This document shows, piece after piece, positions 4,217-49,064 of a DNA stretch of 64,000 nucleotides. Position numbers and translations under genes: made by a program. Under the pieces are notes generated by a model. It saw only the letters and a program-made list of their open reading frames with translations. It had not been told where the DNA came from and did no database searches. Within the stretch, counting starts at the first letter, position 1; each line of letters starts with the position of its first letter. Origin of the DNA: Thermoprotei archaeon (GTDB lineage: Archaea; Thermoproteota; Thermoprotei; Thermoproteales; B15-G16); contig QMRC01000002.1 of NCBI GenBank assembly GCA_003649205.1, positions 208,770-272,769 of the forward strand, read 5' to 3'.

Positions 4217-4294
4217 AACTAGACTAGCTATTCAGCACCAATCTCGTCATTGCGCTTACTACTTGTGTAAAATTATTCATAGTTATTCCCGATG

Positions 4295-4344
4295 GTGATG
4301 AACCCACCCTTGACTGTACTCATGATGAAACTGTCTCACACTGA
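4295..4344 (+). ncRNA. box C/D guide sRNA
   Basis: The architecture is regular: C box GTGATGA (4295-4301), 12-nt spacer, D' box CTGT (4314-4317), 4-nt gap, C' box ATGATGA (4322-4328), 12-nt spacer, D box CTGA (4341-4344). Two 12-nt spacers between perfect boxes is the standard archaeal dual-guide form. The second guide, AACTGTCTCACA, is complementary to GUGAGACAGUU, which I recall as a universally conserved 23S rRNA stretch upstream of the sarcin-ricin loop. It lies in the gap between radA and the next gene. Confidence 0.85.
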
Positions 4345-41476: not shown

Positions 41477-41565
41477 GGGCCCGTAGCTCAGCCTGGTAGA
41501 GCGGCGGGCTTTTAATCACGTGAGAAGAAACCCGCAGGACCCGGGTTCAAATCCCGGCGGGCCCG
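41477..41565 (+). tRNA. tRNA-Lys(TTT) with 15-nt intron
   Basis: Acceptor GGGCCCG/CGGGCCC, T arm ACCCGGGTTCAAATCCCGG. The anticodon stem GCGGG/CCCGC encloses 22 bases; removing 15 (41515-41529) at position 37/38 leaves CTTTTAA with anticodon TTT. Discriminator G and encoded CCA (41566-41568). Confidence 0.92.
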
Positions 41566-41568
41566 CCA

Positions 41569-49015: not shown

Positions 49016-49064
49016 TCAGAAGCAAGAGGCTTCATCAACATTCAGTAGTCGAGTTGATCATCAT
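49016..49064 (-). ncRNA. box C/D guide sRNA
   Basis: On the minus strand: C ATGATGA (49064-49058), 12-nt spacer, D' CTGA (49045-49042), 3-nt gap, C' TTGATGA (49038-49032), 12-nt spacer, D CTGA (49019-49016). All boxes are canonical and both spacers are 12 nt. TATA-like GATTTATC lies about 40 bases upstream. Confidence 0.8.

What the first reader, a model, noticed from the sequence alone, without database searches (positions are those of the whole stretch)
4295..4344. C/D sRNA with a guide matching a conserved 23S rRNA segment
All boxes and spacers are canonical. The guide next to D is the reverse complement of GUGAGACAGUU, which I remember as a universally conserved 23S stretch shortly before the sarcin-ricin loop. 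By the D+5 rule the methylated base would be the A in GUG-A-GAC.
Basis: partly seen in the sequence, partly recalled or inferred. Interest (0 to 1): 0.75.

Follow-up and report, generated by a model that had tools for sequence, protein, structure and literature searches.

The report
Archaeal double-guide C/D box sRNA
A short stretch after the radA gene of a Thermoproteales archaeon almost certainly encodes an ordinary C/D box guide RNA, whose two guides would direct ribose methylation of two nearby bases close to the ribosome's peptide-bond-forming centre; it is a good new example of a well-known class.

Summary
The 50 nt at 4295-4344 (+) have the anatomy of an archaeal C/D box sRNA: C GTGATGA, 12-nt guide, D' CTGT, 4-nt spacer, C' ATGATGA, 12-nt guide, D CTGA. 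The arrangement never arises in 200 shuffles of the window. The whole genome holds 39 distinct matches to this kind of pattern, against 0 for the pattern read backwards. Fibrillarin is encoded. (1) GUGAGACAGUU is not the sequence of this group: 23S of the order reads G(U/C)GAGACAGGU, so the D guide pairs over 9 bp, not 11, and only where the third base is U. The predicted base is A2598 (E. coli numbering). (3) D' is CUGU, not CUGA. Twelve genomes of a sister family and one of another family carry C/D sRNAs with the same 9-nt D-guide core but other D' guides; in all six testable genomes it pairs with the genome's own 23S in the same register. This MAG lacks its own 23S, so its exact target is inferred. 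Real, but low surprise.

The parts
4295..4344 (+). C/D box sRNA core, box C to box D
4295..4301 (+). box C, GTGATGA
   Evidence: consensus RUGAUGA
4302..4313 (+). D' guide ACCCACCCTTGA; positions 2-11 pair with 23S CAAGGGUGGG, D'+5 = G2543 (E. coli numbering)
   Evidence: 10 bp with 23S of f2, f3 and two genomes of other families of the class
4314..4317 (+). box D', CTGT (degenerate)
   Evidence: position after a 12-nt guide; D' is also degenerate in most homologues
4322..4328 (+). box C', ATGATGA
   Evidence: consensus
4329..4340 (+). D guide AACTGTCTCACA; positions 2-10 pair with 23S GUGAGACAG, D+5 = A2598 (E. coli numbering)
   Evidence: 9 bp with f2 23S; core invariant in 10 aligned homologues
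4341..4344 (+). box D, CTGA
   Evidence: consensus

Best explanation
A double-guide archaeal C/D box sRNA gene in the intergenic region after radA. Its RNA would fold C/D into a k-turn and C'/D' into a k-loop, bind L7Ae, Nop5 and fibrillarin, and pair with two segments of 23S domain V 55 nt apart. The D guide would direct 2'-O-methylation of A2598 (helix 93, four bases from A2602 of the peptidyl-transferase centre), the D' guide that of G2543 (just before the A-loop helix 92). Holding two nearby segments at once may also help this region to fold. Shown here: box anatomy, non-random arrangement, conservation of the guide core, matches to relatives' 23S, presence of fibrillarin. Inferred: expression, RNP assembly, methylation, the chaperone role, and that the organism's own 23S reads like that of family f2.
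For: Strict motif once in the window, 0 in 200 shuffles; 40 matches genome-wide (39 distinct), reversed control 0. D guide 9 bp and D' guide 10 bp with f2 23S, both in the D+5 register, 55 nt apart; random pairs of window 12-mers do so at 4e-5, shuffled guides at 6e-5. The D-guide core CTGTCTCAC followed by box D lies in C/D-shaped loci of 12 f2 genomes and of one genome of another family, f11; in the alignment the invariant columns are boxes C, C', D and exactly those 9 paired bases. In 6 of 6 f2 genomes holding both, the guide pairs with the genome's own 23S over 9 bp in the same register. Family f3, whose 23S has C2596 in all 14 sequences, has pattern hits without C boxes only. Fibrillarin E 8e-104; a Nop5-like ORF lies directly upstream of it (by inspection). 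Double guides within 100 nt and a helix 90-93 hotspot are documented (PMC4644070).
Against: The organism's own 23S is not in the MAG; if it had C2596 as in f3, D-guide pairing would drop to 7 bp. D' is degenerate and no terminal stem is evident. The RNA alone is not unusually stable (z 0.5), as expected for a class shaped by protein binding. No Rfam match at the gathering threshold. No expression data.
Confidence: 0.9

Rival explanations
1. A real C/D sRNA in which only the D' guide is productive: the organism's 23S carries C2596 (as in family f3), the D guide pairs too weakly and is an orphan or relic.
For: Own 23S unknown; all 14 f3 sequences carry C2596; three genomes of other families of the class also carry C; orphan guides are common (about one third of 489 sRNAs had no rRNA target, PMC4644070).
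Against: The D-guide core is identical to that of f2 genomes whose 23S has U2596, and of f11; another family of the class (L201) also has U2596. A guide base A facing U2596 would hardly be kept against C.
Confidence: 0.07
2. A C/D sRNA whose main target is not rRNA but a tRNA or another RNA.
For: Some archaeal C/D sRNAs target tRNAs (PMC7994747).
Against: No convincing in-register match in the 46 tRNA genes of the assembly, whereas both guides match 23S 55 nt apart at a chance rate of about 5e-5.
Confidence: 0.02
3. A chance run of box-like letters in an intergenic spacer, not transcribed as an sRNA.
For: No RNA data; no Rfam match; not conserved after radA in the nearest RadA relatives.
Against: 0 in 200 shuffles, paired targets, homologous guide core in C/D loci of 13 other genomes.
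Confidence: 0.01

Closest known systems
[quoted passage not shown] 2015, PMC4644070; e.g. Nanoarchaeum equitans sR10, Pyrobaculum calidifontis sR30)
   Same: Box order, guide length, D+5 register, two targets within 100 nt, same 23S helix 90-93 hotspot; Neq sR10 also couples a helix 93 site (alignment 2880) with an A-loop site (2826).
   Different: The target pair here is A2598/G2543, which would be alignment 2872/2817 by that paper's offset. Neither is named in the paper's main text; its supplementary tables could not be read here, so the sites may already be listed there.
C/D sRNAs of sister family f2 found here (L090, L092-L102)
   Same: Same D-guide core CTGTCTCAC and D box; D' box degenerate in most.
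   Different: D' guide (commonest form GGCGGGCAGAAT) pairs 9 bp with the A-loop, D'+5 on U2552 instead of G2543.
C/D sRNA of L178 (genome G063, family f11, same class)
   Same: Identical 12-nt D guide AACTGTCTCACA.
   Different: D' guide GGATGGGAAGAG matches 23S CUCUUCCCAUCC of relatives over 12 bp (about U2514).

Membership tests
Archaeal C/D box sRNA | Boxes C/C' RUGAUGA and D/D' CUGA in the order C-D'-C'-D | tested here: met
   C, C' and D match exactly; D' is CUGU
Archaeal C/D box sRNA | Guides of 10-12 nt, RNA of about 50-70 nt | tested here: met
   12 and 12 nt; 50 nt from C to D; size range from PMC7994747
Archaeal C/D box sRNA | At least 9 consecutive Watson-Crick pairs with rRNA including the D+5 base (criterion of PMC4644070) | tested here: met
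   9 and 10 bp with relatives' 23S; own 23S not available
Archaeal C/D box sRNA | Terminal stem / k-turn bound by L7Ae | tested here: inconclusive
   No terminal stem evident by eye or in the fold; box nucleotides for the sheared GA pairs of C/D present; binding not testable
Archaeal C/D box sRNA | Fibrillarin and Nop5 encoded in the genome | tested here: met
   PF01269 E 8e-104; adjacent 404-aa ORF looks like Nop5 by inspection, not scanned
Archaeal C/D box sRNA | Expressed as a stable small RNA that directs 2'-O-methylation | not testable with these tools
   No RNA data
Double-guide C/D sRNA | Both guides target rRNA within 100 nt | tested here: met
   55 nt apart in 23S of f2 and of L201

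The most novel reading that the evidence does not exclude
One conserved D guide for A2598, close to the catalytic A2602, is kept across Thermoproteales families and a further family of the class, while its partner guide is swapped among three neighbouring sites (G2543, U2552, about U2514). The fixed guide would anchor helix 93 while the variable one samples the segments upstream, as if bridging this region mattered more than any single second methylation.
Probability: 0.3. Interest if true: 0.4.

Novelty: new member of a known kind. Interest (0 to 1): 0.22.

Why it matters
It adds a predicted pair of ribose methylations near the peptidyl-transferase centre in a poorly known Thermoproteales family, and a clean comparative case of one guide conserved while the other is exchanged. 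It is not a new mechanism.

Tried and rejected
Own 23S: not in the assembly, nor in the genomes of the two nearest RadA relatives. Synteny: radA and its neighbours were not found in the 3-kb loci around the homologous sRNAs (no tblastn hit), and the radA loci at 76-79% identity show no C/D sRNA after radA, so the gene has moved or the guide arose more than once. Pattern hits in family f3 lack C boxes and were rejected as chance. The two hits of the D'-guide pattern in other genomes (L114, L115) are not C/D-like. Targets in tRNA: none convincing. The sigma-70 and terminator scan says nothing for an archaeon; an A/T-rich stretch TAAAATTATT at about 4268-4277 could be a TATA element but was not tested.

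Full report
What is there. Window 4295-4344 (+) reads GTGATGA ACCCACCCTTGA CTGT ACTC ATGATGA AACTGTCTCACA CTGA. It lies 78 nt after the stop codon of radA (Rad51 family) and 88 nt before a same-strand ORF without a Pfam family. Box order and spacings are those of an archaeal C/D box sRNA (guides of 10-12 nt, D+5 rule; PMC7994747). The one departure is D' = CUGU. A strict scan finds the motif once in the window and never in 200 dinucleotide shuffles. In the whole assembly a similar pattern hits 40 times (39 distinct sequences) and the same pattern read backwards 0 times, so this is one gene of an ordinary large C/D set. Fibrillarin is present; the ORF just upstream of it looks like Nop5 (by inspection).

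D guide. The MAG has no 23S rRNA, so relatives were used. In 22 of 23 Thermoproteales 23S loci the segment could be read: CGUCGUGAGACAGGUCGG in 8 sequences, all family f2, and CGUCGCGAGACAGGUCGG in 14, all family f3. The 23rd (L022, f2) reads CGUCGUGAGACAG and then diverges, as if an intron began there. The guide pairs over positions 2-10 (GUGAGACAG, 9 bp) with the f2 form; position 1 and position 11 are mismatched. Position 5 falls on A. Counting from anchors given in PMC4644070 (U2552, first base of the A-loop; C2606, base of helix 93), this A is E. coli A2598 in helix 93.

D' guide. It pairs over positions 2-11 (10 bp) with CAAGGGUGGG in f2 and f3 and in two genomes of other families of the class; D'+5 is G2543. 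The two sites are 55 nt apart. Random pairs of window 12-mers match 23S in this way at 4e-5, composition-shuffled guides at 6e-5. This is a standard double-guide sRNA in the helix 90-93 hotspot described for seven archaea (PMC4644070), and it meets that paper's criterion of nine consecutive pairs including the methylated base.

Relatives. A search of 45 genomes of the order for CTGTCTCRCNNTGA gave C/D-shaped loci with C, C' and D boxes in 12 f2 genomes, and one more (L103) with degenerate C boxes; hits in f3 lacked C boxes. A class-wide search added L178 from another family, whose 12-nt D guide is identical to ours. In an alignment of ten of these, the invariant columns are boxes C, C' and D and exactly the nine guide bases that pair. 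In six f2 genomes where both the guide and the genome's own 23S are held, the 9-bp pairing exists in the same register every time. Where the rRNA has C2596 (f3) the guide is missing. The D' guides differ: the common f2 form pairs 9 bp with the A-loop so that D'+5 falls on U2552, a conserved 2'-O-methylation site (PMC9976906); L178's D' guide matches 12 bp further upstream, at about U2514. This resembles the guide-module exchange described in PMC4644070. The loci share no neighbours with the window, so common descent of the gene versus convergence of the D guide is undecided.

Other targets. There is no in-register match of 8 bp or more within the bodies of the 30 best tRNA genes of this genome, and one 8-bp D' match in a long candidate tRNA among the other 16. 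None of the other 38 distinct C/D sRNAs of this genome hits these two 23S sites with 9 bp or more.

Judgement. The finding is real and its kind is right. It is an ordinary member of a large, well-studied class with well-supported but untested targets. Unproven are expression, the organism's own 23S sequence, and the methylations themselves.

Noticed in passing
window 49016-49064 (-): A second well-formed C/D box sRNA (ATGATGA TCAACTCGACTA CTGA ATG TTGATGA AGCCTCTTGCTT CTGA); no 9-bp target in relatives' 16S or 23S.
   Followed up: partly
G000 contig C3, 1-291428 (outside the window): The contig looks like a perfect palindrome: tRNA and C/D matches mirror each other about its centre (coordinates sum to 291429) and the central 19.4 kb is 100% identical to its own reverse complement. 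Probably an assembly artefact that inflates the genome by about 146 kb.
   Followed up: partly
G000 contig C2:283118-285856 (outside the window): Six C/D sRNA pattern matches within 2.8 kb on both strands, an unusual cluster.
   Followed up: no
G000 C19:440-612, C14:33408-33608, C5:38771-38950: C/D sRNA matches lie about 50-65 nt from tRNA genes; those on C19 and C5 are on the same strand, as in reported tRNA-sRNA cotranscripts.
   Followed up: no
L022 (f2 genome G017), 23S near the A2598 site: The 23S sequence diverges right after GUGAGACAG, as if an rRNA intron interrupts the segment next to the guide target.
   Followed up: no
window 41477-41568 (+): tRNA reported with a four-base anticodon (ttta), tRNA-???; possibly an intron-containing tRNA misread by the program.
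   Followed up: no
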